Positions 9,527 through 39,055 of a stretch of DNA of 64,000 bases are shown here, piece by piece. Every line of letters starts with the position of its first letter. Position 1 is the first letter of the stretch. The stretch comes from Pseudofrankia saprophytica (GTDB lineage: Bacteria > Actinomycetota > Actinomycetes > Frankiales > Frankiaceae): assembly GCF_000235425.2 (NCBI RefSeq), contig NZ_KI912266.1, positions 5,943,582 to 6,007,581 on the forward strand. The letters are read 5' to 3'. Made by a program: the position numbers and the translations under genes. A model generated the notes under the pieces. That model saw only the letters and a list, made by a program, of their open reading frames with translations, ran no database searches and was not told the DNA's origin.

Positions 9527-10657
9527 ATGGGGGGAACATGCACTGGGGGCGCCCGGGTCGTCGCGCTCGCGCTGCTGGGTGTCTCGGCTGTTCTGACGGC
9601 GGTGACAGTGGTGGTGGTGGGGGTGCCGGGCTCGGCGGCTGACTGGGTGACTGTCGTGGGGGCGCCTTTCGTGCCACCGGGTCTGTACCTGGCCTGGGCG
9701 GCCTACCAGGCCAACCGGCGAGAGGCAGCGGCCGGCGCACTGGACCTGGCCGGGGTCGCCGACCAGCTCGCGATCGCAGTACGCCGCCAGTGGGAGCACG
9801 AAGTCGGACTACGCCGGCTCAATGACCCGTATCCGCTGCCGGTGCGCTGGATCCCGGCGGACAGCGACCTGGTGCAGCAGTGGGAGTCGCTGGTGCGGCT
9901 GGCGAGCTCCGGAGCCGGCTGGCCACCACCCCCGCCGCCAACGCCACCGGGCACGCCGCAGGTGTGGGCGGCCGGGCCGGGCGACCTCGCCGGCGGTGAC
10001 GGTGATCTCGCGGGTCTGCTCGACCGGGTCCCGACCGGCCGGCTGGTCGTGCTCGGCGAACCCGGGGCGGGCAAGACGATGCTCACCGTGCGCCTGGTCC
10101 TCGACCTGCTCGCCGCCGTCCGGCGTGCCCCGGGCGGGCCGGTCCCGGTCCTGGTCGCGCTGGCGTCCTGGAACCCCCACCAGCAGTCCCTGCACAGCTG
10201 GCTGGAGACCCGGCTGGCCATCGACTATCCCGGCCTGACCGAACCCGCACCGGGCGACGCCGAGACCAGCCGGGCCAAAGCGCTGCTCGACGCCGGGCTG
10301 ATCCTGTCGATCCTCGACGGCCTCGACGAGATCGCCGACACGGTCCGCGGCGCCGCGATCGCCCGGATCAACGACGCGGCCCCTGCCGGAATCCGGCTGG
10401 TGGTCACTGCCCGCACCGACCCCTACCAGCGGGCGGTCTGCCCGCCCGGCGGACCCGAGATACGCCTGGCCGGCGCCGCCGGCATCCAGCTCTGCCCGCT
10501 GGACGCGGCCGTGGTCGCCGACTACCTACGTGCCTCCTCCGGCGGCCCAACCGGCGCCGCCCGCTGGGACCCCCTGCTCAACACCTGGCCGGCACCAGTC
10601 GCCCAGGCGCCGACGACCCCGCTGATGGCCACCCTCGCACGCACCATCTACAACGGG
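9527..10657 (+). pseudogene. Membrane-anchored NACHT NTPase, cut by IS6
   Basis: The N-terminus has two hydrophobic segments (ALALLGVSAVLTAVTVVVVG and VTVVGAPFVPPGLYLAW). A cytoplasmic linker and a NACHT-type NTPase domain follow: Walker A GEPGAGKTML, Walker B LILSILDGLDEIA, then LVVTARTDPY (sensor-like). NACHT proteins act as ligand-triggered switches, and many bacterial ones serve in phage defence. The C-terminal sensor region expected after the NTPase is lost. At about 10658 the frame enters an IS6 element and stops soon after. No downstream half is seen within the window. Confidence 0.8.
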
Positions 10658-11475
10658 GCTGTTGCGTTGACTGGGCACCGTGGTCGGGTTGGCAGTCAGG
10701 CATGATCGACTGGTGCATCGTCGGCGTGTCCGTCCCGTGGTCGCGGCCTCCGAGTTCGCGGGGTTCCGGTTTCCACCGGAAGTGATCGTGCTGGCCGTCA
10801 GGTGGTACCTGCGCTACGGGCTCTCCTACCGGGACGTCGAGGAGCTGTTGACCGAGCGCGGCATCACGGTCGATCACGTCAGCGTCTACCGGTGGGTGCA
10901 GCGGTTCACTCCGTTGCTGATCGACGCCGCCCGGCCGTGCCGCCACAGCCCGGCCGACAGATGGTTCACCGATGAGACGTATGTAAAGGTCGCCAGCCGC
11001 TGGACGTACCTGTACCGGGCGATCGACCAGTTCGGCCGGGTCATCGACGTCCTCGCCTCCGAGAAACGGGATCTCGCCGCGGCCCGCCGGTTCTTCACCC
11101 GGGCGCTGTCCCACGGCCGACGCCCAGTCGAGGTGACCACCGATCGGGCCCCGGCCTACCCACGGGTCCTCGACGAACAGGTGCCCGCCGCCCACCACGT
11201 CGACGCCCGGTACGCGAACAACCCGATCGAGGCCGATCATGGCCGATTGAAGGCGCGGCTGCGGCCGATGCGCGGCCTCAAACGGCTGAGCTCCGCCCAG
11301 GTGATCGGCTCCGGGCATGCCTTCGTGCAGAACGTTCGCCGCGGCCACTACGAACTCGCCACCGACACCGAACCCCACCAGCGGCTCGCGGCAGCCTTCA
11401 CCGAACTCGCCCAGGCCATCTGACCAGGTAAACCACCGGCCCTTACCACGCCCCACGCCGGCTCAACGCAACACC
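10658..11475 (+). mobile_element. IS6-family element, copy 4
   Basis: About 818 bp, bounded by TGTTGCGTTGA (10660-10670) and TCAACGCAACA (11463-11473). It is nearly identical to copy 5 at 16604-17408 over the right three quarters, but lies in inverted orientation. It truncates the NACHT gene on the left and a minus-strand gene on the right. No matching 8-bp target duplication is apparent. Confidence 0.9.
10713..11423 (+). CDS. IS6-family transposase (copy 4)
   Basis: An intact 236-residue DDE transposase. It has a helix-turn-helix around [19 protein letters not shown], then [26 protein letters not shown] and [21 protein letters not shown] 10713 ([10 protein letters not shown]) is the start shared with the sister copies. 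The protein differs from copy 5 only near the N-terminus (TERGITVDHVSVYRW against [15 protein letters not shown]), so the two elements are recombinants of one lineage. Confidence 0.88.
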   Translation: MHRRRVRPVVAASEFAGFRFPPEVIVLAVRWYLRYGLSYRDVEELLTERGITVDHVSVYRWVQRFTPLLIDAARPCRHSPADRWFTDETYVKVASRWTYLYRAIDQFGRVIDVLASEKRDLAAARRFFTRALSHGRRPVEVTTDRAPAYPRVLDEQVPAAHHVDARYANNPIEADHGRLKARLRPMRGLKRLSSAQVIGSGHAFVQNVRRGHYELATDTEPHQRLAAAFTELAQAI

Positions 11476-11699
11476 GCCGGTGGCACTCCCGACAGCTTTC
11501 CGCTCCAGCCACGATCTCTGGTCAAGATGAGGCGTCTTCCGTCGCGCAGAGTCGCGAACTCTTCGATGCGAAAGTGCAGCGTGTTCATGGACGAGTTGTC
11601 TTTCCCCGAAGGCCGCGGCACCGCGGATGGTGTGCCGCGGCGCTCGTCCTCGGTCACATAGTCGCACCAGGCCCCCATTGCCACGACCACCGCATCCAT
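11476..11699 (-). pseudogene. N-terminal fragment of an unknown gene, cut by IS6
   Basis: Minus-strand ATG 11699 opens MDAVVVAMGAWCDYVTEDER and continues to FRIEEFATLRDGRRLIL and TRDRGWSG before IS6 copy 4 is reached. The sequence has good protein character, but I do not recognise a family. About 70 residues remain. It is divergent from the nuclease-NTPase gene and could once have been its partner. Confidence 0.5.
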
Positions 11700-11909: not shown

Positions 11910-14900
11910 GTGGACTACGATCTCAACCGGCTGGGCGACCGAGAGTTCGAACATCTGTCGCAGGCGCTCGCGGTGTCCGAGCTGGGGTCGGAGGTGCACG
12001 TCTTCGGTGATGGCCCCGACGGAGGACGGGAAGCCTCGTTCGAGGGCACGTTCGATCTGCTGCGGGACAGAGTCAGCGGCGGTAGCTGGCAGGGTTACGG
12101 AGTGCTCCAGGCCAAGTATCGACGCCGGCCGGAGGGCGCGACGCGCGACGCCGGATGGTTCGTCGGCCAGGTCAGGACCGAACTCGAGAAGTGGTCGGAC
12201 CCGGGATCGAACCGGGTCCGAGGAGGTCGGCGTCCCGAGTTTCTTCTGCTCACCACCAACGTAGTGCTCTCACCCGCACCAAGAAGCGGCGGGATCGACG
12301 TGGTAGATGCTCTCCTGGAGGGCTACGCACAGCGCCTCGGCCTTCGAGGATGGGAGGTGTGGCACTACGACAAACTTTGCCGCCTGATCGATGTGGCGTC
12401 TGGCGTCCGCACCGGCTACCGCCATTTTGTCACGCCTGGGGACGTCCTCTCGCGGCTCCTTGACCGCTTTCCCGAGAGTTCGCCGCCGACTCGGTCCGCG
12501 CATCCTTATCTACGCGAAGCCCACACTCCCCTGCCGGGCAGGTACCTTCCCGCACAGCTTCTCAACCCGCGCTACGGTGTCGTTCCGTTCCTCGGGCGCA
12601 GCCGCCTGTTGGGTGAGCTCGTGGAGTGGTGTGAACGCACGGACATATTCAGCGTCGCGCTCATCGTCGGACAAGGAGGCAGCGGAAAAACTCGTCTGGC
12701 GACGGAGTTGTGCTCGCACATGAGATCCAGACGCTGGGACGCCGGCATGGTCGACGCCCCGGCGTTCGCCAGAGGCCCATTGGTCGATAGTCCATCGCTG
12801 TTGGTGTTCGACTACTCGGACCAGGTGTCGGACCTTGTGAAGGAGGGCCTCGCGGCGCTGGCACATCGGCCGGCAGGACCTCCGGTCCGCGTGTTGCTTC
12901 TGGCGCGACATGCCACCGGCGCCTCCGACTCGTGGTGGTCTCGCCTCGCCGACGCGACCGACCAGACGGTCACGGAGATGGTAGACCTTCGTGTCACTCT
13001 GGAGGATCACCCTATGGACCAGGAGGAGCGGATGTTGCACGCCGAGCGCGCGACTCGGGCATTCGCTGACCACCTCGGGTCCTCTGCATACACCCCGCCC
13101 GACGTCGCCGGCGATGACTTCGCAAGCCCGCTGCTCGTTCACATGGCCGCGTTGCTCGCTGCGCAGGGCGATACCGTGAATCATCCGGCTGGCGGCCGGA
13201 GCACCCGAGAGACGGTCCTCGCTCAAATCCTTGGACGTGAGCGCAGAGCGTGGACAGCGCATCTGCCGGCGCATCGACTGGAAGATCTACATCCATCCCA
13301 TGCCAATCGAGCGGTCCTTGTCGTCAGTCTCGTGACGCCGAGCCGGGCTGAGATCTTCGACCTGCTGAAGGCCTTCCCTGAATTCGCGGACCCGACTCTC
13401 CGTTCAAAGATCTCCGAATGGCTTTCTGCGGTATACCCGGATTCTTCGATAGGTCCGGATCTCCTGGCCGAGGAGCTGCACGCTCAAAGCGCCGACCTCG
13501 CAGAGGTCGTCTCGGCGATCTACCGGAGCCCTGCCTGCGGCGACAGGCATCTTGCGCGGCTCCTACAAGTGCTCGGGCGGGGGGCGGAGCGGAGGGAGCA
13601 GCCAGCCAGGGTTCTCGGCGACCTGTTCGCCGACCATATCCAGGAGCTGGTCGACCGGGCGCTGGCCAATGCGGACGGTGAACTCGCCGGCACTCTGAAC
13701 GGCGCGTTGTGGATCTGTTGGCTGACATATCGCGAGCTCAATTTCATCGTAGCTGTGTCCACTACTGAGCACGCTCTTGGTCCGCACGGGGCCGGAGCCG
13801 CCGCACTGCTTGTCGGTCTCACCTACCTTCGTGCCTGCGCCACCCAGCTGCTGGCAGCCCGCGAGGGGCCGGAGATGCGTTCATACCACGTTGGGGCGCT
13901 GATCGCGCTTGGTGAAAGGTATGCGGACGCGGGCCGCTACGACGAGGCGCTCACAACTACCGAGGAAGCCGTTGTCGAGTTTACCAAACTGGATCCGAAT
14001 ACGACGGAGAACCTCGAACAGTGGATTCGTTTGGCTTTCCAACTATTCGGTTGCCTCAGCGTCCGCTATGCCCAGCTCGGAAGGCACGATGACGCGGTAC
14101 AGGTGGGCGAGCTAGCCGACGGACTGGCCAGGGAGTTCACCCCAGAACGTGTTGCATCACCTAGTTCTCACGCCCAGCTACTGAGCTCCCTGGCTGGTAG
14201 CTATAGCGGGCTTGGCAAGCTCGACAAGGGTCTTGCGGCGGCCACCGAAGCCAAGAGTCTGTGCCAACAGTCAGGCGGCGACGATAGCGAGGAAATTCTC
14301 TCAGGTATTCTTTTCAATATCGGCTCTACGCTACGGGAATCCGGCCGCGACGCCGATGCCCTACGGCACTATCGAGAGGCGCTTTCCGGATATCGACGCC
14401 TTGCGGCCGAGGACGCCGCGGGCAAGTATCTGCCCGACCTTGCCCAGATCGAGCTCTCGATCGGCCAAACGATCCTTGAGATCGGACTGGGAAGACGTCG
14501 AGCCGGCGAGGAGGAAGCGGCGCGATCAGACTTCGCCGAGGCGCGCGTCGCGCTCGAGGAGGCGTCCGAACTATACTGGAAGCTTTCGCTGCAACTCCCC
14601 GACCGGTTCAACCCCGAGTTCAACCGCGCCCTGTGCGAGCTGGCTCGCTGTCATGTTCACCTCGGCTTCCCGGTCAAGGCCGTCGATGCACTCCGTGCGG
14701 CCGCAGGCCTACTTCCGGACGTCGAATCAATCAGGAATGGCCGGCGGTACCCCTGGCTGGAGAAACAGGCGGGGCACCTGGTCGATACCCTTAGCGAGCT
14801 CGGACTGGAATGCGACGACGTCCGCAGCGTCGCGCGCGACGTGCTGGAGCTCCTACGCGGCGCGGAAGCGGCATCGCCGGGCATTTTACTTCACCCACTT

Positions 14901-15506
14901 GCCCGATCCCTGCACCAGGTCGCCTACTTCGATGCGCTTGGGGGAGATGACGGGGCGATCCTTCTACTGGACGAGGCGTCGGCGACGTGGTCGGATCTCG
15001 TGTCACAGCTAGAAGACACGCCTGGTCCGGGACATGTCCGTGGAAGGTCGTCAGAGCAGGCACCCGTGAGTCGCGACGCGATCATGATGTCGTGGACTCG
15101 GACGCTCAGCAGCCTTACGTCGCTCTACAACACGGCCGGCCACTACAGTGCAGCCAGGGCCTATACCCGAAAGACGGTCGAAATCTGGCGCGAGCTAGCG
15201 AGTATTGACGGAGAGCATCGAGAATCCCTCGCGAGGTCCCTGGTCCAACTAGGGTATCTCGCTGAGTTGATCTTCATGGGAGCTGGCGTCCCCGCCTGCC
15301 GCGAGGCGCTCACCCATCTGCGTGCCTACTGTGCGGATCATCCGGACAGGGCCGCCAATACTGTTGGGGTTTTCCGCTCCATAGGGGATCTCTTTCAGAT
15401 GTCCGGGCTGACGGCAGAAGTCGCCACGACCGCGGCGGACGTGCGACGTCTCGGCGACCCCGCAGAGGTACTCGGGGCGTCCATGAGATCCGACCGGGAT
15501 CGCTGA
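11910..15506 (+). CDS. Mrr-like nuclease / STAND NTPase / helical-repeat protein
   Basis: A 1198-residue three-part protein. Residues 1-150 match the Mrr-like PD-(D/E)xK restriction domain of actinobacteria: DYDLNRLGDREFEHL, then GDGPDGGREASFEG (Asp37) and GVLQAKYRRRP (Gln67-x-Lys69). Residues about 230-480 are a P-loop NTPase with Walker A GQGGSGKT (254-261) and Walker B LLVFDYSD (297-304), in the style of STAND switches. Residues about 500-1190 are TPR-like helical repeats (for example ALIALGERYADAGRYDEAL). This layout is that of single-protein antiphage sensors (Avs-like): the repeats sense, the NTPase oligomerises and the nuclease cuts DNA. GTG 11910 is chosen because the conserved domain begins there, although no strong ribosome site is seen. 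It lies alone between inverted IS6 copies. Confidence 0.85.
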   Translation: MDYDLNRLGDREFEHLSQALAVSELGSEVHVFGDGPDGGREASFEGTFDLLRDRVSGGSWQGYGVLQAKYRRRPEGATRDAGWFVGQVRTELEKWSDPGSNRVRGGRRPEFLLLTTNVVLSPAPRSGGIDVVDALLEGYAQRLGLRGWEVWHYDKLCRLIDVASGVRTGYRHFVTPGDVLSRLLDRFPESSPPTRSAHPYLREAHTPLPGRYLPAQLLNPRYGVVPFLGRSRLLGELVEWCERTDIFSVALIVGQGGSGKTRLATELCSHMRSRRWDAGMVDAPAFARGPLVDSPSLLVFDYSDQVSDLVKEGLAALAHRPAGPPVRVLLLARHATGASDSWWSRLADATDQTVTEMVDLRVTLEDHPMDQEERMLHAERATRAFADHLGSSAYTPPDVAGDDFASPLLVHMAALLAAQGDTVNHPAGGRSTRETVLAQILGRERRAWTAHLPAHRLEDLHPSHANRAVLVVSLVTPSRAEIFDLLKAFPEFADPTLRSKISEWLSAVYPDSSIGPDLLAEELHAQSADLAEVVSAIYRSPACGDRHLARLLQVLGRGAERREQPARVLGDLFADHIQELVDRALANADGELAGTLNGALWICWLTYRELNFIVAVSTTEHALGPHGAGAAALLVGLTYLRACATQLLAAREGPEMRSYHVGALIALGERYADAGRYDEALTTTEEAVVEFTKLDPNTTENLEQWIRLAFQLFGCLSVRYAQLGRHDDAVQVGELADGLAREFTPERVASPSSHAQLLSSLAGSYSGLGKLDKGLAAATEAKSLCQQSGGDDSEEILSGILFNIGSTLRESGRDADALRHYREALSGYRRLAAEDAAGKYLPDLAQIELSIGQTILEIGLGRRRAGEEEAARSDFAEARVALEEASELYWKLSLQLPDRFNPEFNRALCELARCHVHLGFPVKAVDALRAAAGLLPDVESIRNGRRYPWLEKQAGHLVDTLSELGLECDDVRSVARDVLELLRGAEAASPGILLHPLARSLHQVAYFDALGGDDGAILLLDEASATWSDLVSQLEDTPGPGHVRGRSSEQAPVSRDAIMMSWTRTLSSLTSLYNTAGHYSAARAYTRKTVEIWRELASIDGEHRESLARSLVQLGYLAELIFMGAGVPACREALTHLRAYCADHPDRAANTVGVFRSIGDLFQMSGLTAEVATTAADVRRLGDPAEVLGASMRSDRDR

Positions 15507-16197: not shown

Positions 16198-16603
16198 TCA
16201 GGCGGCTCGGTGGTATTCGTTGATCACGCTGCCGAGGATCTTGCGGCGACGGATCGGGCCGTCGAGGGGGGTGACGGCGGCCGGGTCGTGGTTCGGTGGG
16301 CGCTGGTCGCGCCCTTGGTGGGGCCGATGATCGTCGAAGTGGCGGGTGTACTCGTCGAGCACCGCGGCGGCGTGGCGCTCGCCGTACAGGATGATCCTGT
16401 CAGTGCACTCCTCGCGCACAGAGCGGATGAACCGCTCCGCGTAGCAGTTCGCCTGTGGTGTCCGTGGCGGCGTGCGCACGACCTGCACGCCCTCGGAGGC
16501 GAACACGTCGTCGAACGCCTGGGGGAATTTCGTGTCCCGATCGCGGATGAGGAACCGGAAGCGGCCGAGGCGTCCGTCCAGGTCCATGGCGAGGTGGCGG
16601 GCG
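16198..16603 (-). pseudogene. rve-type transposase C-terminal half, cut by IS6
   Basis: The minus strand reads [20 protein letters not shown] (second Asp of the DDE triad), [21 protein letters not shown] (with the Glu) and [15 protein letters not shown], typical of integrase-core transposases of the IS3/IS481 group. The N-terminal HTH and first Asp are missing because IS6 copy 5 begins at about 16604. It belongs to a different IS from the rve element at 21803. Confidence 0.8.
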
Positions 16604-17408
16604 GTGTTGCGTTGAGCCGGCGTGGGGCGTGGTAAGGGCCGGTGGTTTACCTGGTCAGATGGCCTGGGCGAGTTCGGTGAAGGCTGCCGCGAGCCGCTGG
16701 TGGGGTTCGGTGTCGGTGGCGAGTTCGTAGTGGCCGCGGCGAACGTTCTGCACGAAGGCATGCCCGGAGCCGATCACCTGGGCGGAGCTCAGCCGTTTGA
16801 GGCCGCGCATCGGCCGCAGCCGCGCCTTCAATCGGCCATGATCGGCCTCGATCGGGTTGTTCGCGTACCGGGCGTCGACGTGGTGGGCGGCGGGCACCTG
16901 TTCGTCGAGGACCCGTGGGTAGGCCGGGGCCCGATCGGTGGTCACCTCGACTGGGCGTCGGCCGTGGGACAGCGCCCGGGTGAAGAACCGGCGGGCCGCG
17001 GCGAGATCCCGTTTCTCGGAGGCGAGGACGTCGATGACCCGGCCGAACTGGTCGATCGCCCGGTACAGGTACGTCCAGCGGCTGGCGACCTTTACATACG
17101 TCTCATCGGTGAACCATCTGTCGGCCGGGCTGTGGCGGCACGGCCGGGCGGCGTCGATCAGCAACGGAGTGAACCGCTGCACCCAGCGGAACAGCGTCAC
17201 ATGGTCGACAACGATGCCGCGCTCGGCGAGTAGTTCCTCGACGTCCCGGTAGGACAGGGAGTAGCGCAGGTACCACCTGACGGCCAGCACGATCACTTCC
17301 GGTGGAAACCGGAACCCCGCGAACTCGGAGGCCGCGACCACGGGACGGACACGCCGACGATGCACCAGTCGATCATGCCCGACCGGTCGCGCCCGGCCAA
17401 CGCAACAG
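16604..17408 (-). mobile_element. IS6-family element, copy 5
   Basis: About 805 bp with TGTTGCGTTGA near 16605 and CAACGCAACA at 17398-17407. It is inverted relative to copy 4 and nearly identical to it from the transposase middle to the end. The two copies bracket 5.1 kb that includes the nuclease-NTPase gene. The outer end abuts the IS110 upstream region. Confidence 0.88.
16655..17365 (-). CDS. IS6-family transposase (copy 5)
   Basis: An intact 236-residue DDE transposase from GTG 17365 ([10 protein letters not shown]). The motifs [26 protein letters not shown] and [18 protein letters not shown] are all present. The HTH region ([19 protein letters not shown]) differs from copy 4, while the catalytic and C-terminal parts are the same. 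This points to recombination between IS6 copies. Confidence 0.88.
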
Positions 17409-23042: not shown

Positions 23043-23615
23043 ACACCGCGCTGGGTGACGTTATCGGACGAATCCCAACACTCGCCCAGTAGTCCCCGAG
23101 GACAGGGACCTCCTACGGCCAGAGTGACAGACGGTGAGCGGGGGGCGGGGAGCGGGGAGCGGGGAGCCCACACGGTGGTAGACGCCACCTCGCCTCACGC
23201 TGTCTGCGGGCCGGCGGCGGACGGTCCGACCGTCGCAGCCGCCGTATCAGGGACGAAGCCAAGAACCTACATAGATTTCAGTTGACTGGCAGAGTGCTGG
23301 TATTAGGCGTGCGCAGTATTCCTCCTCGCGTGGCGGCCTCGTATCGTCTCGTGGCGGATCGGATTGCCTCGCCGGCTGACGGGGGCGGCGGCGGCTTCAC
23401 GGGGCGCCGATCATGTTCGGCGAGGCGATGCAGCGGTGTGTCAGGACCGTCGTCGTGGGAGGTAACCGTTCGATCAGGGCGGTTTCAGGTTGCCGCCGAT
23501 GGAGGAACGCTCCTTCTCGCGGAAATCTCACATGACCAGCTGCGTTGGGCCGCGCCGGGTTACACCTGAAGCGGTGGCCGGTAAGCCAGAGGGCGGGCCG
23601 GCGTGTGGAGGGTCC
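23043..23615. other. Gene-free region upstream of terpene synthase
   Basis: No gene is supported. It holds a short G-rich tandem (GCGGGGAGCGGGGAGCGGGG at about 23143-23162) and the first copy of a dispersed repeat at 23279. A longer in-frame extension of the cyclase to 23490 is possible but reads unlike a protein and lacks a ribosome site. Confidence 0.5.
23279..23322 (+). repeat. Dispersed 45-bp repeat, copy A
   Basis: Begins CAGTTGACTGGCAGAGTGCT, then TATT, 11 bases, GTATTC. The first 26 bases match copy C (25547) at 23 positions, and the TATT-N11-GTATTC spacing is the same in all four copies. It lies 290 bp before the cyclase gene. Confidence 0.6.
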
Positions 23616-24650
23616 ATGCCGCAGGACGTCGCATTCGATCTGCCCTTTCCGCTCCGCGTCCACCAGGACATGGAAGGCGCACGCGCTCGCAACCTCGCCT
23701 GGGTCCGTCGGCACGGGCTTGTGGGTGGCGAACGGTCGGTGGACTGGTACACCTCGTGGGACATTCCCCGGCTCGCCGCCTACGGCTTCCCCGACGCCAC
23801 CGGACCGGGGCTAGATCTATGCACCGACGCTATGGCGTTCTTCTTCGTCTTCGACGACCAGCTCGACGGCCCCCTGGGTCGGGCGCCCGACCGCGTAGCC
23901 CGAGTGTGCCAAGGCCTGATCGACATCATTCACGGCACCTCCCCTCGCCACGGCGACGACCCGTGCTCGGTCGCCTTCGCTGACCTTTGGCGGCGCAGCA
24001 CCCATGGTGCCTCGCCCGCCTGGGCGGCCCGGGTCGCCAGCGAGTGGGAGTACTACTTCGCCGCCCACGCCCACGAGGCGCTCAACCGGCGCCGTGGGGT
24101 GCCGGCCGACATGGAGCAGTACCTCCAGGTCCGGCGGGGCATCGCCGGGACGACACTGCCGCTGTCGCTGGGGGAACACGCCGCAGGCCTCACGCTGCCT
24201 CCAGCCGTGTTCCACAGCCCGCAGCTCAGGATCATGCGAGAGATCGCCATCGACATCACGCTGATGTGCAACGACGTGTACTCCCTGGAGAAGGAGGAAG
24301 CGCGCGGGGACATGGACAACCTCGTCCTGGTTCTCGAACACACCCGGCACTACACCCGCGACGAGGCGGTCGCTGCGGCTCAAGGGGAAGTCCACCGACG
24401 CTGCACCCGCTTCCAGGAGCTGGCCCACGACGTCCCGGCCATGTGCACCCACCTCGCACTCCCCGCCACGCAGCGCGCCACCGTGACCACCTATGTCGGC
24501 GTCCTAACCGCCTGGATCTGCGGCTATCACGCGTGGGAAACCGAGACCCTGCGCTACACCACCGCGCTGGAGGTCCTCCCTCGGACCGGCCCCGGATTCT
24601 TCGAAAACGTCTTGGAAGATCCAGGTCCCACTGATTCGTCAAGACCGTGA
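23616..24650 (+). CDS. Class I terpene cyclase (sesquiterpene-synthase type)
   Basis: A 344-residue bacterial terpene synthase, the usual single-domain length. The Asp-rich metal motif is DDQLD (residues 80-84, in [12 protein letters not shown]). The NSE triad is N219/S223/E227 in NDVYSLEKE, and the terminal R313-Y314 pair is in ETLRY. These bind the Mg ions and diphosphate of farnesyl (or a similar) diphosphate in the cytoplasm. The product cannot be predicted. ATG 23616 is chosen because GGAGGG lies just upstream and the family N-terminus ([13 protein letters not shown]) follows directly. No P450 or other tailoring gene is adjacent, so it probably makes a volatile such as geosmin-like or pentalenene-like hydrocarbons. 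Confidence 0.93.
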
Positions 24651-28605: not shown

Positions 28606-28863
28606 TGTCGACCTTGAGGGCCTTCCGGGAACGGGCCGCGTGGGCGAGCTCGGGTGAGCTGGCACGGTCGCGCCCGCCCGTCTCCCCCTCCTCCGAGCTT
28701 GCGCTGAAGGGGACGGTTGGCCGTGGTGGCGCCAGATTTATCGCTTCGCAACGGGCAGCAGGCCGCGGGCCAACGACGTGTGACAGCCGGGTCGATGACC
28801 ATGCATGCTGTCCGGGAGCATGCCGTGCGATCTCGTCGCGCATGCCTGGGATCGGGGGTACGC

Positions 28864-29946
28864 ATGGGAGAAGGGCTCACGACTGGCGAGATCGGCGCAC
28901 TCGCGGAGCTGTTCACGGATCCGCTGTCTGCCGGTCAGTTGTTGAACGGGGCCGGTCTTCGCCGAGCGCATCATCCAGCATGGGTGGCGGGACTGAGCGC
29001 GCACCTTTTCTGGTCGGAGGTGTCGCGCCTGCTTGCCGCGGGTGTGTTGGCTGACGGCCGGGACCGGCTTCTGGCCGCGGCGCATGCCTGGTTTCCCGCC
29101 AATCCGGCGTTCGTGGGTGGCCCGCTGCCCGGCGGCGCCGCGGGCGACGTGGTCGCCGCGGTCGTCGCCGCCCGCCTGGCCTGCCTAGAGGTCATGTGGC
29201 TGGTCGCAGACGCCACTGCCCGGTCGTTCGGTAGCGCCGTCGCCCGCAAGGGAGCCCGCAGGTTCGCCCAGCGCGCTGCCCGAGAACACGGCACTGACGC
29301 CGACGCCCTTCCGGCTGGCAACGCCCGAGGCCTCGCCCGCGCGGGCGGCGACCGACTCGCGGACTGGCTCGACCAAGGGCGTGGCCGTTCCCTTGACCGC
29401 GCGCACCAGCTGACCGACCAGCTGGCCGCCGCCTTGGACCGCGCCCGTGAACTTGGCGGCGATGACAGCCCCGGGCTCGACCGGGCGTGTTACCTGGCAC
29501 ACGATCTTGTCAACCGGCTACGGATCCCCGCCCTTCGCGATCTGCGGACAATGTTGGACACGCTCAACGACCTCGGCGAGCACCTGATGGGCACGGTCAC
29601 GGTCGAGGCCTCCGGACTGGACCTGTCCGCGCTGAAGGGCGTCGGCCTCGACGGCCTCGACCTGCTGGCCGGCGTGACCTGGACCGAGGAGACAACCTGG
29701 CCACCTCACCTGACCGAACCTCTACGCGCACGGTCCATCGAGACCAGCCCCGGTATCTACCAGATACGCGGTGACGAGGCCTGGGCACTGGCCTTCGCGG
29801 ACGTCGACCGGCAGCTCGACGACGTCACGGCCACGCCAGCTCCCACACAGCGTCGCGAGACGAGCGGACCAGAAGACATGACCAGCGACGAACCCGCCTG
29901 GGCGTATAGCCAAGAGCCCGAGCCTTTGCCGCATACAGACCAGTAG
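28864..29946 (+). CDS. EAD1-like domain protein (conflict-system adaptor)
   Basis: A 360-residue protein. Residues 1-85 (LTTGEIGALAELFTDPLSA, HLFWSEVSRLLAAGVLADGR, LLAAAHAWFPANPAF) match the pattern of effector-associated domain 1 (EAD1). EAD1 is a death-fold-like adaptor described in bacterial conflict systems, where matching EADs couple sensors to protease or nuclease effectors. A helical middle follows. The C-terminal part (GLDLSALKGVGLDGLDLLAG, VTWTEETTWPPHLTEPLRAR, SPGIYQIRG) is a module frequent in actinobacterial multidomain proteins. No catalytic motif is seen. ATG 28864 follows GGGGGTA. A protease partner would be expected; the TPR-CHAT protein at 32083 is the nearest candidate but shows no EAD. 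Confidence 0.65.
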   Translation: MGEGLTTGEIGALAELFTDPLSAGQLLNGAGLRRAHHPAWVAGLSAHLFWSEVSRLLAAGVLADGRDRLLAAAHAWFPANPAFVGGPLPGGAAGDVVAAVVAARLACLEVMWLVADATARSFGSAVARKGARRFAQRAAREHGTDADALPAGNARGLARAGGDRLADWLDQGRGRSLDRAHQLTDQLAAALDRARELGGDDSPGLDRACYLAHDLVNRLRIPALRDLRTMLDTLNDLGEHLMGTVTVEASGLDLSALKGVGLDGLDLLAGVTWTEETTWPPHLTEPLRARSIETSPGIYQIRGDEAWALAFADVDRQLDDVTATPAPTQRRETSGPEDMTSDEPAWAYSQEPEPLPHTDQ

Positions 29947-32082: not shown

Positions 32083-35000
32083 TCAGGCGCCGCTGTGGAT
32101 GTGCGACGCCCACACCGACGGCATGTGTGCCCATCGGTTGCGCAGCCGGCGGGTCGCGGCATGCAGCGCGGCAGCTGCGTCGATGACGCCGTCGGCGTCA
32201 GGGAGGGCGGTGTAGATATCGCGGGCGAGGGTCGCGGCGTGCCGATCATTGATCGGCGACAGGGTGCCGATCACGTGCCGGTAGCCGGCTAGTTGGAACG
32301 CCGAGGCGAGGTGGATCGCTTCGTCGGCCAGCCGGTTACCTGGGCGGGCTGTCGAGCAGGCCGATAGGAACGCCAGCTGAGCATCGTCCAGACGCAGCCG
32401 GGCCACGTCGACCACGGTCAACGGCTGCTGCCGGTGGTCTTGGAGGAGCAGCCGACTGGCAGAAGGGTGACTGGGGTCGCTCGACCCGTGGCAGGCGAGA
32501 TGCGCCCACCCCGCCGTGGGCAGCGCGGCAAGCACCGCCGCGCGGGTGGCCTGAGGTCCGACAAGCGTGCTGGTCCGGTCCGGGAAACGCTGCTGGAGCA
32601 TGGCGACCTCCGCATCCGCACCGGGAAGATCAGCGGCCTCAGGGGTGTGCGGCATCGCCACCACCAGCCGGCTGTCCGAACCGAGCCGTCCTCGGTCGAC
32701 GTCTCTGTCGCCTGAGTGGGTCCGGCGGGCGTAGATCAGCGCCCGGATGGTCGGGGTGTAGGACGACACCACTCGGTCAACCACCGTTTTCGGGGCGGGA
32801 TCGAAGCGGGTGGCGTGGTGGCCGGCGGCGTGCAATGGCAGGAACGACAGCAGTCCGGACACACACCACCACAGCCGCGGCCACTCCTCGTCCTTCTGGG
32901 GCGGTCCGGTGATGCCTAACCGGTCCAGGACCGGGCCGGTGACGGCGTCCCACAGCCAGCCGAGCGTGTCCGCCAGCCGCCGTTGCGCGGCACCCCAACC
33001 TTCGGTACCTCCGTCTGGCGAGGACACCTCGTCGAGGGCTGCGAGGAATCCGTCCGCCTGGTCGTAGACGGCCTCGGTAGTTAGAGCCACCAGCGGCACC
33101 GGCTCCAGGACACCTCCGGTGGTCAGGATCAGCGCGTGCGAGCCGAACCGGGAGACGTTGACGACGACGACCGGACCGCTCGCCGCAGCCGCCGTCAGGT
33201 CCTGCACCGGTGGTGGACGCAGGAAACGCGCGAAGGCCGGCAGGTCCCGGATCTCGCCGATCGTCTGGTCGAATGCGTCGGCTAGCTGCCGCCGTCGCTC
33301 CACGTCGCCGCGTGCTACGTCGACGTTATGGTCCCACCCGGGAGGTGTCGTCACCGGTCGCGTACCCAAGCCATCGGCCCTGTCGAGGTCGTCACGCAGA
33401 GCGATGAACCGTCTGGCTAGGTCCGGAAACTGCTCAGCGAGCGCGGTCAGGTCGGTGCGGGTGTCCAATGCCTGACCCAGCAGGACCCCACGGCCCTGCT
33501 CGAAGAGTTCGATCGCGCGTTCCGCTAGGCCGGCGTGCACGCAGCATGCCGCCGCTTGCGATCCCAGGCCGCCTAGCTCGGCGAGTAGATGTTCCTGGTC
33601 GCCTCGGGCGAGGCTACGCGGTGCCACCCGTCCCAGGAGGTCAACGGCTGCCGCGAAACCCGCGACGGCCTCGTCCCACCGCATCCCGTCGGCAGCGGTG
33701 TGTCCCCAACCGCGTGCGGCCCGCGCGCGAAGCCGAGGTGACGCCACCTCGACGGCCACGGCGGCCCGACTCGCGGCGATCGCCTCGTCTAGATCCGCCT
33801 GGTCGCCGTACTGCTCGAACCGGAGGCTTAGGGCGGTGCCCAGGTTAGAGAGCCATGCGGCGCGGTAGGGATGATCGGGCGGGCTGGCGTCCAGCGCCCC
33901 GCGGCACGCCATGACCGCCTCGTCTAGATCGGCCTGGCTGGGTGATCGCTCGAACCGGGTCAGCAGGGCGATGCCCAGATTGGAAAGCCACGCGGCGCGG
34001 TAGGGATGAGTGGGTGGGCTGGTGGCCACTGCGTCGCGGCCGGCGGTGACCGCCTCGTCCAGATCCGCCTGGCTGTCCAACAGTTCGAACCGGGTCAGCA
34101 GGGCGCGGCTGAGGTTGGACAGGTAGCTGGCCATGCCCGGATGGTCGGGTGGGCTGGTGGCCACTGCGTCGCGGCCGGCGCTGACGGCGTCGTCCAGATC
34201 CGCCTGGCTTCCCGTCCACTCGGACCGGATAAGCAGCGCGGCGGCGAGGTTGGACAGCCATCCGGCCCGGTGGGGATGGTCAGGTGGGCTGGCTGCCAGC
34301 GCCGCCCGGCCGGTGCTCACGGCCTCATCCAGGTCTGCCTCGCTGCCCGTCCGCTGCGATCGGATACGGAGCGCAAGACCAAGATTCGCCCCTGCCGTGG
34401 CACGGTCGAGATGATCGGGTGGACTCGCCGTCACCGCGTCGCGGGCGGCGCCGATGGCCTCATCCAGATCCGCCCGGCTGCCCAACAGTTCGAACCGAGC
34501 CTGTAGCGCCGTGCCCAGGTTCGTTACCAGAGCGACCTTCGCAGGGTCGCCGGGTGCCCAGGCGGCCAGCGCCGCCCGGCCGGCTCTGATGGCCTCATCC
34601 AGGTCCGCTTGGCTGCCCGTCCGCTCGGACCGGAGACGTAGCGCGGCCACATGGTTAGCCACCATCGTGGTTCTTTCCGGGTGGTGTGAGCTGACAGCCA
34701 GCGCTTCGCGGCCTGCGCTCACGGCCTCGTCCAGATCCGCCTCGCTGCCCGTCCACTCGGACCGAATACGCAGCGCGGCGGCCAGGTTGCCCAGTCGTTT
34801 GATCATTTCCGGATGGTCGGGTGGGCTGGCAGCCACCGCGTCGCGACCCACGCTGATGGCCTCGTCCAGATCCGCCCTGCTGCCCCACCGCTCGGACCGG
34901 GTACGCAACGCCGCCCCGAGGTTGGACAGCCATCCGGCCAGGTTGGGATCGCCGGGTCGAAGGGCGGCCAGCGCCGCGCGGCCTGCGACGACTGCCTCAT

Positions 35001-35292
35001 CCAGATCCGCCCTCCTGCCTGACCACTCGAACCGGACATACAGTGCGGCAGCCAGATTGGCCAGTATCCCGGCCTGCGCCGGATGGTCGGAAGGACAGAT
35101 GTCCAGCGCCTGCCGATGCAGGTCGATCGCCGCGGTCAGCCCGGCACGGTCACCGGTACGCACCGTGTTCCGCATAAGTTCCTCGGCGCGCATCGCCGTG
35201 ATCTGCAGACGGGCGATTAAGACGGGATTACGTCTGTCGAGTCGCGCTCGGAACTGTTCCAACCGTGCCCACACCTCTGCTACCGCCTTCAT
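32083..35292 (-). CDS. TPR-CHAT caspase-like protease
   Basis: A 1069-residue protein. Residues about 60-510 hold ten tandem copies of a 44-residue TPR-like unit (consensus around RADLDEAVSAGRDAVAASPP). A helical connector follows (about 515-690). The C-terminal CHAT domain carries the catalytic dyad His935 (WAHLACHGSSD) and Cys979 (LAFLSACSTARPGN), then GYRHVIGTLSPINDRHAA. CHAT proteases are caspase relatives; TPR-CHAT proteins are activated by a partner or sensor and cleave specific substrates, causing cell dormancy or death. It is the first gene of a minus-strand unit with a small protein and a membrane protein. ATG 35292 has no strong ribosome site. Confidence 0.9.
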   Translation of the reverse strand: MKAVAEVWARLEQFRARLDRRNPVLIARLQITAMRAEELMRNTVRTGDRAGLTAAIDLHRQALDICPSDHPAQAGILANLAAALYVRFEWSGRRADLDEAVVAGRAALAALRPGDPNLAGWLSNLGAALRTRSERWGSRADLDEAISVGRDAVAASPPDHPEMIKRLGNLAAALRIRSEWTGSEADLDEAVSAGREALAVSSHHPERTTMVANHVAALRLRSERTGSQADLDEAIRAGRAALAAWAPGDPAKVALVTNLGTALQARFELLGSRADLDEAIGAARDAVTASPPDHLDRATAGANLGLALRIRSQRTGSEADLDEAVSTGRAALAASPPDHPHRAGWLSNLAAALLIRSEWTGSQADLDDAVSAGRDAVATSPPDHPGMASYLSNLSRALLTRFELLDSQADLDEAVTAGRDAVATSPPTHPYRAAWLSNLGIALLTRFERSPSQADLDEAVMACRGALDASPPDHPYRAAWLSNLGTALSLRFEQYGDQADLDEAIAASRAAVAVEVASPRLRARAARGWGHTAADGMRWDEAVAGFAAAVDLLGRVAPRSLARGDQEHLLAELGGLGSQAAACCVHAGLAERAIELFEQGRGVLLGQALDTRTDLTALAEQFPDLARRFIALRDDLDRADGLGTRPVTTPPGWDHNVDVARGDVERRRQLADAFDQTIGEIRDLPAFARFLRPPPVQDLTAAAASGPVVVVNVSRFGSHALILTTGGVLEPVPLVALTTEAVYDQADGFLAALDEVSSPDGGTEGWGAAQRRLADTLGWLWDAVTGPVLDRLGITGPPQKDEEWPRLWWCVSGLLSFLPLHAAGHHATRFDPAPKTVVDRVVSSYTPTIRALIYARRTHSGDRDVDRGRLGSDSRLVVAMPHTPEAADLPGADAEVAMLQQRFPDRTSTLVGPQATRAAVLAALPTAGWAHLACHGSSDPSHPSASRLLLQDHRQQPLTVVDVARLRLDDAQLAFLSACSTARPGNRLADEAIHLASAFQLAGYRHVIGTLSPINDRHAATLARDIYTALPDADGVIDAAAALHAATRRLRNRWAHMPSVWASHIHSGA
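33740..35115. repeat. Ten 132-bp tandem coding repeats
   Basis: Within the TPR-CHAT gene the DNA repeats with a 132-bp period, each unit including a segment like GCCTCGTCCAGATCCGCCTG (plus strand). Neighbouring units are close in sequence, so copy number may vary between strains by slippage or recombination. That would change the length of the sensor array. Confidence 0.8.
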
Positions 35293-35615: not shown

Positions 35616-36473
35616 TCAGCCAGCGGTTGGCGTACTCGCTCCGAGGTAGAGCTCTGATCCCCATCGGGCACCCACCGTCGCGGGAAACGGTTCGACGCGG
35701 ACGTAAGCCCCCTCGTGAGGCGCGTCCACCATCATCGCCTGGCCATTCTGGATACCAAGGAAGATGCCGACATGGGTGACCTTGGCTGGTCCGCCACCGA
35801 AGAACACCAGGTCCCCCGGCAGCAGGGGCCTATCAGCTGAAACAAGCGGGCCGGCGTTGTACTGGCCCTGGGCCGTACGAGGGATCTGGGCACCCGCGGC
35901 GGCATAGGCGGCAGCCGTCAGACCACTGCAGTCGAACCCGGGCTCGCCATTACCACCCCAGACGTAGGGCTTACCGATCTGCCCGCAAGCGAACTGAACG
36001 GCAGTCAGCGCGACGCTACTGAAATGATCTATCCCGGACTGAAACGATGACTGAAATGTAGCGCACGCTACTGAAGCGTTCGGGTTCGGTTCAGAGTACT
36101 GGGTGGCCTGGGTGAGGACCTGAGCGACGTAGGAATCGTCATGGTTATACGCCCACAGCGCCCCGGTCAGGTCGGTGGCGACGTGGTTGTCGCACAGGTA
36201 GGCCGCGGCGGCGTAGACGGCGTCCTGGGGGTTGTGGAGCGACGGCGGGTCCGCGCCGCCCGCTGGTAGCTGGTGGTGGGCGACGACCTCGGCGAAGGTC
36301 GGGGCGAGGAACTGCATGGGACCGCCGGCGCCGGCGCTGTTGGTGCCGCTGGCCACGCCCGGCAGCCGACTACGACCGTGATCGGATTCGACCTTGCCGA
36401 TGGCGGCGATTGTCGTCCAGGACAGGCCGGGGCAGGTCGCGGCGGCCTGCATGTAGAGGTTCGGCGGCGGCAC
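35616..36473 (-). CDS. Lytic transglycosylase / NlpC-P60 cell-wall hydrolase
   Basis: A protein of about 285 residues with two wall-degrading domains. The SLT lytic transglycosylase comes first (TTIAAIGKVESDHGRSRL, with catalytic Glu in KVES; GGPMQFLAPTFAEV). The NlpC/P60 endopeptidase follows (GFDCSGLTAAAYAAAG with Cys; KVTHVGIFLG with His). Such two-domain enzymes open peptidoglycan for conjugative machinery. The GTG at 36473 is the first in-frame start. A good signal peptide (YLTAAVAAVVLLIVMTGAAA) lies immediately upstream in another frame, and the replication-relaxation gene upstream ends with a GTGA overlap at 36538. This hints at a frameshift at the N-terminus. Confidence 0.75.
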   Translation of the reverse strand: MPPPNLYMQAAATCPGLSWTTIAAIGKVESDHGRSRLPGVASGTNSAGAGGPMQFLAPTFAEVVAHHQLPAGGADPPSLHNPQDAVYAAAAYLCDNHVATDLTGALWAYNHDDSYVAQVLTQATQYSEPNPNASVACATFQSSFQSGIDHFSSVALTAVQFACGQIGKPYVWGGNGEPGFDCSGLTAAAYAAAGAQIPRTAQGQYNAGPLVSADRPLLPGDLVFFGGGPAKVTHVGIFLGIQNGQAMMVDAPHEGAYVRVEPFPATVGARWGSELYLGASTPTAG

Positions 36474-36537
36474 CTGTCATCACGATGAGCAGGACCACGG
36501 CGGCGACGGCGGCGGTGAGGTATTTGGTCGTGGTCGC

Positions 36538-37554
36538 TCACCCCCCGGTACCGCTCGGGGGCATCGGTGTGGGCGGGCGCAGGCCCGGCCGTGCCGAGGT
36601 GTCACCAGAGCGGCCGTCGATCGGGTCGGGGGGTCGTAGCCGGGGCCAAGCGGAGGTGAGCTGGTCGAGGGGGAGCCGTCCGCCGCGGGCCGTGGTCAGG
36701 GGCAGCCAGCGGGGAAGGGTGGGATCGAGCTGGGCGTCGGCGGGGGCGAGGGTGGCGGCGGTGGTGGCGACCGGGACCATGTCGGGCTGGTCGAGCCCGG
36801 CCAGCGCCGTGGCGAGCGTTCGCCGCGCGTTGGTCTCCCGTCCGGCGGTGGGGAACCAGAACAGCACCGGGGTGCTGATCCTGGTCGCCGCCGCGAGCCG
36901 GCCGTAGTCGCCGATCTTCAAAGCGAGCCGGCCCAGCTGTTCGGTGGCCCAGTCGAGTTCGAGGAACCATTCGATCTCGCCCCGGGCGGTGCTCCAGCGG
37001 CCGTAGGCGTCGGGGCGGACGATGTCGCCGAACGCGCGTAGGCAGCGGGTTTCTGACCACCAGGCGGTCAGGGTGCCGGGTGGGGTGGGGCGGCGGGCGT
37101 GGGCGATCAGGGCGGTGAAGAAGCCATTGACGGCGACCGTGTGCGCCAAGCGCAGCGAGTGGGCGACGGCCATCGCACGGGTGTGGCGGTAGCCGGTCTC
37201 CTTCAGCTCGATGCTGTCCTCGGCGGCGAGCACACTGGCGCCGGCGATGTCACAGACGTAGTGCGCCGGGGGCTGGCCCTGCCCGACGGGAACCAGGGGC
37301 TGGAAGCGGTCGAGGACCCGCCACCGGTAGAGCTCGAGTAGCCGGCGATTCGCGGCCCGTTGGCTGGACCAGCCGACCTCGACGATCTGGTGGGTGGTCA
37401 ACACCCGGTGCTCGTGGGCCAGCCGGGTGATCCACCGGTCGCGGGGCGAGAGGTGGCGGGCGAGATAGGTGACCAGCGCGGCGTCGGCAACGACCCGGCC
37501 GGGGGCCCGGGGCGGGATGCGCAGGGCACGTTGGGGCTGCGGGTAGGCGACCAT
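36538..37554 (-). CDS. Replication-relaxation family protein
   Basis: A 338-residue protein with the Replic_Relax winged-helix pattern: LAHEHRVLTTHQIVEVGW, then AANRRLLELYRWRVLDRF, and RHTRAMAVAHSLRLAHTVAV with GEIEWFLELDWATEQLGRL. It is typical of actinobacterial conjugative and integrative elements, lying next to TraD-like ATPases, and is thought to act in initiating element transfer or replication. It lies 15 bp after the ATPase stop and overlaps the next gene region by 4 bp, so it belongs to one transfer operon. Confidence 0.85.
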   Translation of the reverse strand: MVAYPQPQRALRIPPRAPGRVVADAALVTYLARHLSPRDRWITRLAHEHRVLTTHQIVEVGWSSQRAANRRLLELYRWRVLDRFQPLVPVGQGQPPAHYVCDIAGASVLAAEDSIELKETGYRHTRAMAVAHSLRLAHTVAVNGFFTALIAHARRPTPPGTLTAWWSETRCLRAFGDIVRPDAYGRWSTARGEIEWFLELDWATEQLGRLALKIGDYGRLAAATRISTPVLFWFPTAGRETNARRTLATALAGLDQPDMVPVATTAATLAPADAQLDPTLPRWLPLTTARGGRLPLDQLTSAWPRLRPPDPIDGRSGDTSARPGLRPPTPMPPSGTGG

Positions 37555-37569
37555 GAGAACTCCGTGGTG

Positions 37570-38352
37570 TCAGCTGGCGGATCGGCGGGGGTCGGCCTGT
37601 GGCTGCGGGGCCTGTGGGTCCGGCGGCGTCGGTGCAGGGGTGGGTGTGCGGCGGCGCAGCTCGCGGCGGATCTGCGCGGCCCGGCCGGGCACTGGGGCGG
37701 GGAGCTTCTCGGTGCGCAGCGTGAAGGCCGGTGCCTCTTCTCCGACGACGACGAGGCGGGTGGCCGCGTGGAAGCGGCCGAGGTTGGCCAGGTCGTGCTC
37801 GGACAGGCGGGGCTCGACGTGGCGGACGAGGCGCTTCGCGTCGGCCGGCGACATCGTGAAGTAGATCTTGCTGCGGGCGTTCGCGGCGATGCTCTCTTCA
37901 AGGTGCCGTGGCAGCTGGGCGAGGTTCTGGTGCGCCAGGGTGATCCCGAGGCGGTAGCCGCGGGCGGCGGCGAGCATGTCCTCCAGCGCGTACGGCAGCG
38001 TGAGGAAGTTGTGGGCCTCGTCCAAGAACAGGCTGGCGTCCGGCCGTTTCCCCTGGGGCATGCGGGCGCGGCGGGTGGTGGCCTGCCAGACCGAGGACAC
38101 GACGATCGAGCCCATGAGTGCCGCGGTCTCGACCCCGAGGGCGTCTTGCGCGATGCGGACCAGGCACACCCCGCCGTTGTTGAGCACGGCGTCCATGTCC
38201 ACTGTCGAGGGGCCGGCGGCGATCGCGGCCCGGACGAACGGCCGTAGCAGGAAGCCTCTGAGTTTGTTCATCAGCGGGGCGACGGCGTGCGCCCGCGCCG
38301 GTTCGGACAGCGCTTCGTACCACTGCCAGTGGATCGGCGGAATGACCAACCT
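37570..38352 (-). pseudogene. TraD/VirD4-like conjugation ATPase, 5' part lost
   Basis: The C-terminal half of a type IV coupling-type ATPase. It contains IHWQWYEALSEPARAHAVAP, GGVCLVRIAQDALGVETAAL, Walker B DASLFLDEAHNFLTLP, then LGITLAHQNLAQLPRHL and a Pro-rich tail. The Walker A half is missing. Protein sense stops at about 38350 and the DNA changes character, near a large serine recombinase at 39056. Insertion of an integrative element into this gene, or deletion, is likely. Confidence 0.75.
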
Positions 38353-38897
38353 TCCGGCAGACGAGGGTCGCCGTCGTGCATGATCCGGCCGACATCGGTG
38401 CTGGCTTTTCGGACGGCAACGGACTCGACCAAAGCGAAGACCCGCTCGAGGCCCACGGCGGCGATGATCCGCCCGACTCTGCCCTCGCAGACAGTCCAGC
38501 AGTCCTAGGTCGGCTTGCAACCGACGCAGACCGTGCGAGCCGAGTCGCGGCGAAGCGCGCGGCCTCTCCGAAAAAAATCAGGCACGAGTCCGCATCCGGA
38601 CTCATTCCCAGTCCGACAACGGACCGAACAACAGATGCCTTTCCGGGCCCAGACCGGCCTTTCATATGCGCCAGATCAAGTTCCGGAGCCGACGATTTTC
38701 CCTGCACCTCCGGGCAATCGCCACACCTCGGCCGCGGTACTATTTCCACGCACGGCCCGGGTACCGCACCATGCCCTCCCGGCACTTCCTGCGCCGCTAG
38801 TCCGATCATCCCGACGGCCGCGCCGGTAACCGACGCACAACTCGCCCCGGCCCCGCGGTCCAAAAGGTCCAACAGCCGTTCCTCAGCCACATCCGTT
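38353..38897. other. Gene-free stretch between ATPase remnant and recombinase
   Basis: No supported gene. Long frames here are low-complexity and compete across strands. This is where an integrated element's attachment junction would be expected, but I could not define matching att sequences. Confidence 0.4.
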
Positions 38898-39038: not shown

Positions 39039-39055
39039 GCAGAAGGGAAACTCGC

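What the first reader, a model, noticed from the sequence alone, without database searches (positions are those of the whole stretch)
11910..15506. Single-gene Mrr-nuclease / STAND NTPase / TPR sensor, likely antiviral
Seen: PD-(D/E)xK-type box (Asp37, QAK at 67-69), Walker A and B, and about 650 residues of helical repeats in one uninterrupted frame. Known: Avs-type STAND proteins have effector-NTPase-sensor order, some with Mrr-like nucleases. Inference: a pathogen-triggered DNA degrader. The actinobacterial N-terminal domain looks distinct from the enterobacterial Avs nucleases.
Basis: partly seen in the sequence, partly recalled or inferred. Interest (0 to 1): 0.75.

Follow-up and report, generated by a model that had tools for sequence, protein, structure and literature searches.

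The report
Frankia nuclease-STAND-TPR immune sensor gene
A soil actinobacterium (Frankia) carries one large protein built from a DNA-cutting domain, an ATP-driven switch and a long sensing arm, most likely a bacterial immune receptor that degrades DNA on sensing an invader; it is a divergent new member of a known kind.

Summary
In detail: an intact 1,198-residue gene (GTG 11910 to stop 15506), almost certainly from Frankia sp. CN3. The N-terminal ~186 residues are predicted to fold as an Mrr-type PD-(D/E)xK nuclease. The best solved structure in the VIA comparison is the Avs4 nuclease (Z 10.8, 12% identity), before AF1548, AspBHI and MspJI. One correction: aligned with Mrr and MspJI, the catalytic acid is Glu41, not Asp37, with Gln67 and Lys69. 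The middle is a divergent STAND-like NTPase, below every Pfam cut-off; the C-terminal half is TPR. Relatives swap parts: of 27 other proteins with the nuclease module, 5 have nSTAND1, 20 NACHT-like and 1 NB-ARC-TPR bodies, 1 none. Relatives of the body carry trypsin-like, EAD1 or TIR domains instead. The gene is AT-rich for its surroundings and IS-flanked; only its own genome, 1 of 58, has the full architecture. Best reading: an Avs/NLR-like receptor that cuts DNA when its TPR arm binds an invader component. Avs membership is unsupported by sequence; defence is untested. Sound, fairly ordinary.

The parts
11910..15506 (+). whole gene, 1,198 aa, single-chain nuclease-NTPase-TPR protein
   Evidence: GTG start agrees with relatives
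11910..12467 (+). residues 1-186: Mrr-type PD-(D/E)xK nuclease module
   Evidence: AlphaFold2 model pLDDT 80.2; VIA match to Avs4 nuclease Z 10.8; hhalign to Mrr_cat domains of relatives 93.9%
12018..12032 (+). residues 37-41 (DGGRE): invariant Asp37 and presumed catalytic acid Glu41 (E or D in relatives)
12108..12116 (+). residues 67-69 (Q-A-K): QxK half of the active site, end of strand 3
   Evidence: Q and K in 28 of 28; strand 59-69 in model
12585..13259 (+). residues ~226-450: STAND-like P-loop NTPase (borders approximate)
   Evidence: AAA_16 21.9 bits and nSTAND_NTPase5 17.3 bits, both below cut-off; invariant motifs in 8-sequence alignment
12669..12692 (+). Walker A, residues 254-261 (GQGGSGKT)
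12798..12812 (+). Walker B, residues 297-301 (LLVFD)
13683..15500 (+). residues ~592-1197: helical TPR array, presumed sensor (confident in the model only to about residue 990)
   Evidence: Pfam TPR_2, TPR_12, TPR_10 over cut-off; model helices; VIA matches to TPR proteins, Z up to 20.2
10695..11478 (+). upstream IS240/IS6-type transposase element; its inverted copy (785-base match, 97.3% identity) lies at 16600-17383

Best explanation
The gene encodes a single-protein, NLR-like (STAND) immune receptor. At rest the STAND NTPase holds the N-terminal nuclease inactive. When the C-terminal TPR arm binds an invader-derived protein, the NTPase exchanges nucleotide and the protein oligomerises. This brings Mrr-type PD-(D/E)xK domains together, active site Glu41-Gln67-Lys69, and they cut DNA without much specificity, killing or arresting the infected cell. 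Shown here: the architecture, the predicted nuclease fold, conservation of the active-site residues, NTPase motifs, TPR repeats, exchange of effectors and bodies among relatives, and IS-flanked, strain-specific occurrence. Inferred: activity, oligomerisation, DNA as substrate, protein ligand, antiviral role.
For: Nuclease: model with the helix-three strands-helix-strand core; in the VIA comparison only 4 of 999 chains reach Z 8, and the top four entries are the Avs4 nuclease, AF1548, AspBHI and MspJI, Z 10.8 to 8.0; profile match to Mrr_cat domains; Pfam Mrr_cat found in 3 of 16 module sequences (E 6.6e-4, 0.0042, 0.16); an acid at 41, Q67 and K69 kept in 28 of 28. Switch and sensor. Modularity: of 27 other module proteins 5 have nSTAND1 (4 of them with WD40), 20 a NACHT-like body, 1 NB-ARC-TPR, 1 no NTPase; of 8 body relatives 3 start with a trypsin-like domain, 2 with EAD1, 1 with TIR, 2 with nothing recognised. 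Context: GC3 0.71 against 0.78-0.87 in four neighbours and IS copies on both sides; a NACHT gene that ends at the IS upstream; EAD1 and TPR-CHAT proteins and a serine recombinase further down the window. Precedent: nuclease effectors of Avs1-4 act on recognising phage packaging proteins (PMC12931631, passages).
Against: No defence or cleavage test exists. The NTPase part was modelled poorly (ten-residue means of 26-66 pLDDT over 221-450) and scores below every Pfam cut-off. Plain Foldseek gave no hit at E <= 0.001 for the nuclease model, with a KefC domain ranked first; the Avs4 match rests on VIA, and unrelated chains (acetyl-CoA carboxylase, RNA polymerase subunits) reach Z 4.6-5.8 in the same list. 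The window protein itself has no Pfam Mrr_cat hit. No Avs model matched. No restriction or CRISPR gene was recognised among the 19 neighbouring ORFs scanned.
Confidence: 0.68

Rival explanations
1. A STAND regulator of a host programme (development, programmed lysis, control of a gene-transfer agent) in which the nuclease executes self-killing for reasons other than phage.
For: Relatives of the NTPase-TPR body occur in many actinobacteria; an NLR-like AAA-TPR protein controls release of gene transfer agents in Caulobacter (PMC13236601, two passages read, and the abstract's start in a listing).
Against: The full architecture is in 1 of 58 genomes searched, only its own, and the gene is AT-rich and IS-flanked, which fits accessory conflict genes better than a conserved regulator.
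Confidence: 0.14
2. A modification-dependent restriction enzyme of the Mrr/MspJI kind, with the NTPase and TPR parts as accessory, cutting modified foreign DNA directly.
For: Predicted fold and active-site motif resemble AspBHI and MspJI.
Against: No modified-base reader domain was found by Pfam; the same module occurs with WD40 bodies and the same kind of body with protease-like or TIR domains, which argues for a receptor and not a DNA reader.
Confidence: 0.08
3. A true member of an Avs family (an Avs4-like protein of actinobacteria) that senses phage portal or terminase.
For: Avs4 nuclease is the top structural match of the N-terminal domain, Z 10.8, rmsd 3.0, 139 aligned, 12% identity; same order of parts.
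Against: No Avs model matched in PADLOC or NCBIfam at E <= 1 (no positive control run); no PDB sequence match of the protein or of the NTPase profile to Avs; an NTPase match by structure could not be tested because that part of the model is poor.
Confidence: 0.06
4. A decaying or silent gene, its neighbourhood being rich in IS elements and truncated genes.
For: Shortened NACHT gene and a gene fragment beside it, IS copies on both sides.
Against: Frame intact over 1,198 codons, catalytic and Walker residues kept, coding-type codon-position GC.
Confidence: 0.04

Closest known systems
Avs4 (AVAST type 4; PDB 8dgf)
   Same: Order nuclease-STAND NTPase-helical repeats (recalled for Avs4); the predicted N-terminal fold has the Avs4 nuclease as top VIA match, Z 10.8 over 139 residues
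   Different: 12% identity in the nuclease; no match to any Avs model nor to a PDB Avs sequence; NTPase not shown to be related
Mrr_cat (PF04471), with MspJI, AspBHI and AF1548
   Same: FE helix, DGGxD/E before strand 2, QxK at end of strand 3; hhalign 93.9% over 62 columns; MspJI aligned through
   Different: The window protein itself has no Pfam Mrr_cat hit; Glu instead of Asp at position 41 in 14 of 28 module sequences; longer stretch between strands 2 and 3 than in the Mrr_cat set
nSTAND1-WD40, NACHT-like and NB-ARC-TPR proteins with the same nuclease module (Frankia, Parafrankia, Streptomyces, Streptantibioticus, Lentzea, Crossiella, Herbidospora, Rhodococcus, Caballeronia)
   Same: Same N-terminal module: 39-60% identical in 19 of 27, 25-33% in 6, profile match only in 2
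   Different: Different NTPase and sensor; none of the 27 matches this body at E <= 1e-4
Trypsin-, EAD1- or TIR-STAND proteins of Frankiaceae
   Same: Same NTPase family, 5 of 8 with recognised TPR, 27-38% identity in the main matched parts
   Different: Different N-terminal effector or adaptor

Membership tests
Mrr-type PD-(D/E)xK nucleases | PD-(D/E)xK core fold with K at end of strand 3 | tested here: met
   Predicted model; VIA matches Avs4 nuclease, AF1548, AspBHI, MspJI
Mrr-type PD-(D/E)xK nucleases | Catalytic acid plus (Q/E)xK | tested here: met
   Acid at 41, Q67, K69 in 28 of 28; aligned to Mrr_cat
Pfam Mrr_cat PF04471 | Curated Pfam score for Mrr_cat (21 bits) | tested here: not met
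   No hit for the window protein; 3 of 16 module sequences match, best 20.2 bits
Avs (AVAST) | Effector-STAND NTPase-TPR-like sensor in one chain | tested here: met
Avs (AVAST) | Sequence match to an Avs family model | tested here: inconclusive
   No Avs-named hit at E <= 1 in PADLOC or NCBIfam, but that these libraries hold Avs models was not checked and no positive control was run
Avs (AVAST) | NTPase and sensor fold like solved Avs proteins | tested here: inconclusive
   NTPase modelled at low pLDDT; fold search filled by TPR chains
Avs (AVAST) | Activation by phage terminase, portal or other phage protein | not testable with these tools
   needs experiment
nSTAND_NTPase5 (PF25199) | Curated Pfam score (34 bits) | tested here: not met
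   Window 17.3 bits, E 0.0044; 6 of 8 body relatives match at E < 0.01, 21.6-31.5 bits, all below cut-off
STAND NTPases in general | GR box, Walker A, Walker B and sensor arginine in one chain with repeats | tested here: met
   G229-R230, K260, D301, R333 invariant in 8 sequences; TPR models

The most novel reading that the evidence does not exclude
The N-terminal domain represents an unmodelled, portable subfamily of Mrr-type nuclease effectors (DGGR[E/D]...QAK) that actinobacteria plug into at least four distinct receptor platforms (nSTAND1-WD40, NACHT-like, NB-ARC-TPR and this nSTAND5-like-TPR), with this gene the only carrier of the last combination seen in these searches; receptors would be built by swapping effectors and sensors between platforms.
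Probability: 0.5. Interest if true: 0.55.

Novelty: new member of a known kind. Interest (0 to 1): 0.4.

Why it matters
If right, it adds to bacterial NLR-like immunity a receptor whose nuclease resembles that of Avs4 in predicted fold but whose switch and sensor come from a different, actinobacterial lineage. The relatives make a natural swap series: one effector on four platforms, one platform with several effectors. That makes it directly testable whether effector and sensor halves are interchangeable, and it gives Frankia, a plant-associated genus, a concrete candidate defence gene.

Tried and rejected
Avs identity by sequence: PADLOC and NCBIfam at E <= 1 gave no Avs-named model, PDB phmmer one chance hit, the NTPase profile against PDB only 8 weak hits, best E 0.094, generic P-loop proteins, one plant NLR (MLA13, E 0.45) and others. 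The module profile against PDB sequences found one chance hit. Plain Foldseek with the nuclease model gave no hit at E <= 0.001; Avs4 ranks second there at E 0.12; the VIA comparison was needed. Absence of Avs chains from the 50 rows shown for the full-length model is not evidence, since TPR chains filled it. PADLOC matches to PDC-S73 and to an Argonaute-associated REase-TIR model rest on the first 39-45 residues, and I do not file the gene there. Viral contigs: 2 pattern hits, none confirmed; phages: no match in 50,697 records; plasmids: 57 of 72,556 records match parts, none covers 80%. The NTPase profile search of 197 class genomes (133 with a match) includes very many short P-loop matches and is not used as a count of relatives. 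Dropped rows: three records of contigs already counted (L041, L045, L051) before the count of 27; L031, the same contig as L047; fragments L032, L068 and L072 never entered the count. L036 has an assembly gap over its Walker A and was left out of the alignment. For the Mrr_cat alignment I used 16 of the 20 loci.

Papers: listings (with starts of abstracts); whole text of PMC3622958; passages of PMC7159879, PMC12931631 and PMC13236601. The two original AVAST papers, looked up by DOI, are not held. No listed paper was seen to describe this gene; that is not a claim that none exists. The published MspJI triad D334-Q355-K357 is recalled; one search shows the aligned letters, and counting along its row gives those three positions.
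Full report
What is there. It starts with GTG at 11910 and ends with the stop at 15506, 1,198 residues. A search of the window's own genome returns it at full length once, with five further partial matches elsewhere. The genome has 9,978,592 bases in two contigs, exactly the figure published for Frankia sp. CN3 (2 scaffolds, 9,978,592 bp; PMC3622958, read whole), so the source is almost certainly that strain. The mechanical ORF reaches further upstream to 11574, but relatives carry V/M-DYDL at the same place, so 11910 is the likely start. In 100 simulated 64-kb sequences with the gene's dinucleotide make-up the longest stop-free run was 590 codons.

The N-terminal domain. Pfam finds no nuclease there in the window protein at E <= 1 nor at E <= 10. 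An alignment of 16 sequences (the others 40-56% identical to the window) was used for an AlphaFold2 model: mean pLDDT 80.2, pTM 0.76, with helix 10-28, strands 29-31, 42-49 and 59-69, helix 82-96, strand 111-116, helix 128-143, strand 147-151, the PD-(D/E)xK layout. Foldseek alone gave no hit at E <= 0.001; Avs4 was second at E 0.12, after a KefC domain. The VIA comparison put Avs4 residues 2-175 first (Z 10.8, rmsd 3.0, 139 aligned, 12% identity), then AF1548 (9.4), AspBHI (8.4) and MspJI (8.0), then nucleases such as FokI, Card1 and LmuA, with unrelated chains such as acetyl-CoA carboxylase at 5.4 and below and a viral RNA polymerase subunit at 5.8. A profile of the module aligns with 93.9% probability over 62 columns to a profile of 16 Mrr_cat domains, 15 from Frankiaceae and one from another family of the class. 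Pfam's own Mrr_cat model matches 3 of 16 module sequences, best E 6.6e-4 and 20.2 bits against a cut-off of 21, the others at E 0.0042 and 0.16.

The active site. In the profile alignment Glu41 falls on the invariant Asp of the Mrr_cat set and Lys69 on its invariant Lys. The MspJI chain aligned to that Mrr_cat profile shows SGDGGVD and QAK; counting along the row gives Asp334, Gln355 and Lys357, which I recall as the published catalytic residues. Across 28 module sequences (the window plus 27) position 41 is E in 14 and D in 14, and Asp37, Gln67, Lys69, Glu91 and Asn117 are unchanged. So Asp37 is conserved, but Glu41 is the better candidate for the metal ligand.

The middle and the C-terminus. 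Residues 226-450 hold a P-loop NTPase. AAA_16 (21.9 bits) and nSTAND_NTPase5 (17.3 bits) match below their cut-offs; nSTAND_NTPase5 also matches 6 of 8 body relatives, all below cut-off. In an alignment of eight sequences the GR box (229-230), Walker A Lys260, Walker B Asp301 and Arg333 are invariant. Three TPR models exceed their cut-offs. The full-length model, made without relatives for the body, is poor over the NTPase and fair to good over about 650-990, where VIA finds TPR proteins, Z up to 20.2.

Swapped parts. In 58 related genomes only the window gene covers the whole query; six other genomes match from residue 1 or 3 to between 186 and 294, one more matches residues 2-91, and the other matches fall on NTPase and TPR parts. 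I collected 27 other proteins with the module: 5 from the relatives, 12 of the 15 loci (3 being the same contigs), 1 plasmid and 9 from genomes. Of these, 5 continue into nSTAND1 (4 with WD40), 20 into a NACHT-like body (16 whose module is found by blastp at E <= 1e-19, 4 with a remoter module), 1 into NB-ARC-TPR and 1 into no recognised NTPase. Of 8 body relatives, 3 begin with a trypsin-like domain (two of them below the Pfam cut-off), 2 with EAD1, 1 with TIR and 2 with nothing recognised, one of those having an assembly gap. In one Frankiaceae genome a module-nSTAND1-WD40 gene and an EAD1-STAND-TPR gene lie next to each other (L028 3702-8492 and 9132-11873). The module is uncommon: 18 of 393 class genomes, the window's own and a few partial or remote matches included. 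EADs, STAND NTPases and Mrr-like REase effectors are described in conflict systems of multicellular bacteria (PMC7159879, passages).

Surroundings. Gene GC is 63.9% against 68.5% for the window, and GC3 is 0.71 against 0.78-0.87 in four neighbours. An IS240-type element lies just upstream, with an inverted copy downstream (785-base match, 97.3% identity). A NACHT ORF upstream ends where the IS begins and looks cut short by it. Further down the window are an EAD1 protein, a TPR-CHAT protein, a Replic_Relax protein and a serine recombinase. This is the look of an integrated, conflict-rich region, though no restriction or CRISPR gene was recognised among the 19 neighbouring ORFs scanned.

How it most likely works. 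By analogy with Avs proteins, whose nucleases act when phage packaging proteins are recognised (PMC12931631, passages), the TPR arm would bind an invader protein, the NTPase would switch and oligomerise, and the Mrr domains would cut DNA and stop the cell. The parts are shown or predicted; the switching, the ligand, the substrate and the antiviral outcome are inference.

Membership. It is built like an Avs protein and its nuclease is most like that of Avs4 in predicted structure, but no Avs model matched by sequence (without a positive control) and the NTPase could not be compared structurally. I therefore file it as an NLR-like STAND receptor with an Mrr-type effector, not as an Avs.

Verdict. 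A correct and careful first reading with one residue to change. It is a new member of a known kind; the exchange of this nuclease module over four receptor platforms is the more interesting part.

Noticed in passing
9527-10705 (+): NACHT-domain ORF with an N-terminal hydrophobic stretch, apparently cut short by the IS240-type element that follows it; a second, broken STAND-type gene beside the finding.
   Followed up: partly
10695-11478 and 16600-17383: Two inverted IS240/IS6-type copies, 97.3% identical over 785 bases, bracket the gene; further IS6-type-looking transposase ORFs at 2226, 4760 and 42616 (judged by eye).
   Followed up: partly
28717-29946 (+): Protein with effector-associated domain 1 (EAD1, 61.2 bits), a marker of bacterial conflict systems.
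   Followed up: no
32083-35292 (-): TPR-CHAT protein of 1,069 aa in the same region.
   Followed up: no
35616-40747: NlpC/P60-SLT protein, Replic_Relax protein and serine recombinase, suggesting an integrated mobile element.
   Followed up: no
L048:6998-8173 (Streptomyces tagetis): The same nuclease module in a 392-residue protein without any recognised NTPase; possibly a stand-alone nuclease with an unknown C-terminal domain.
   Followed up: no
L028:3702-11873: Nuclease-nSTAND1-WD40 and EAD1-STAND-TPR genes side by side in one genome: relatives of the two halves of the window gene as neighbours.
   Followed up: partly
23490-24650 (+): Terpene synthase gene within the IS-rich region.
   Followed up: no
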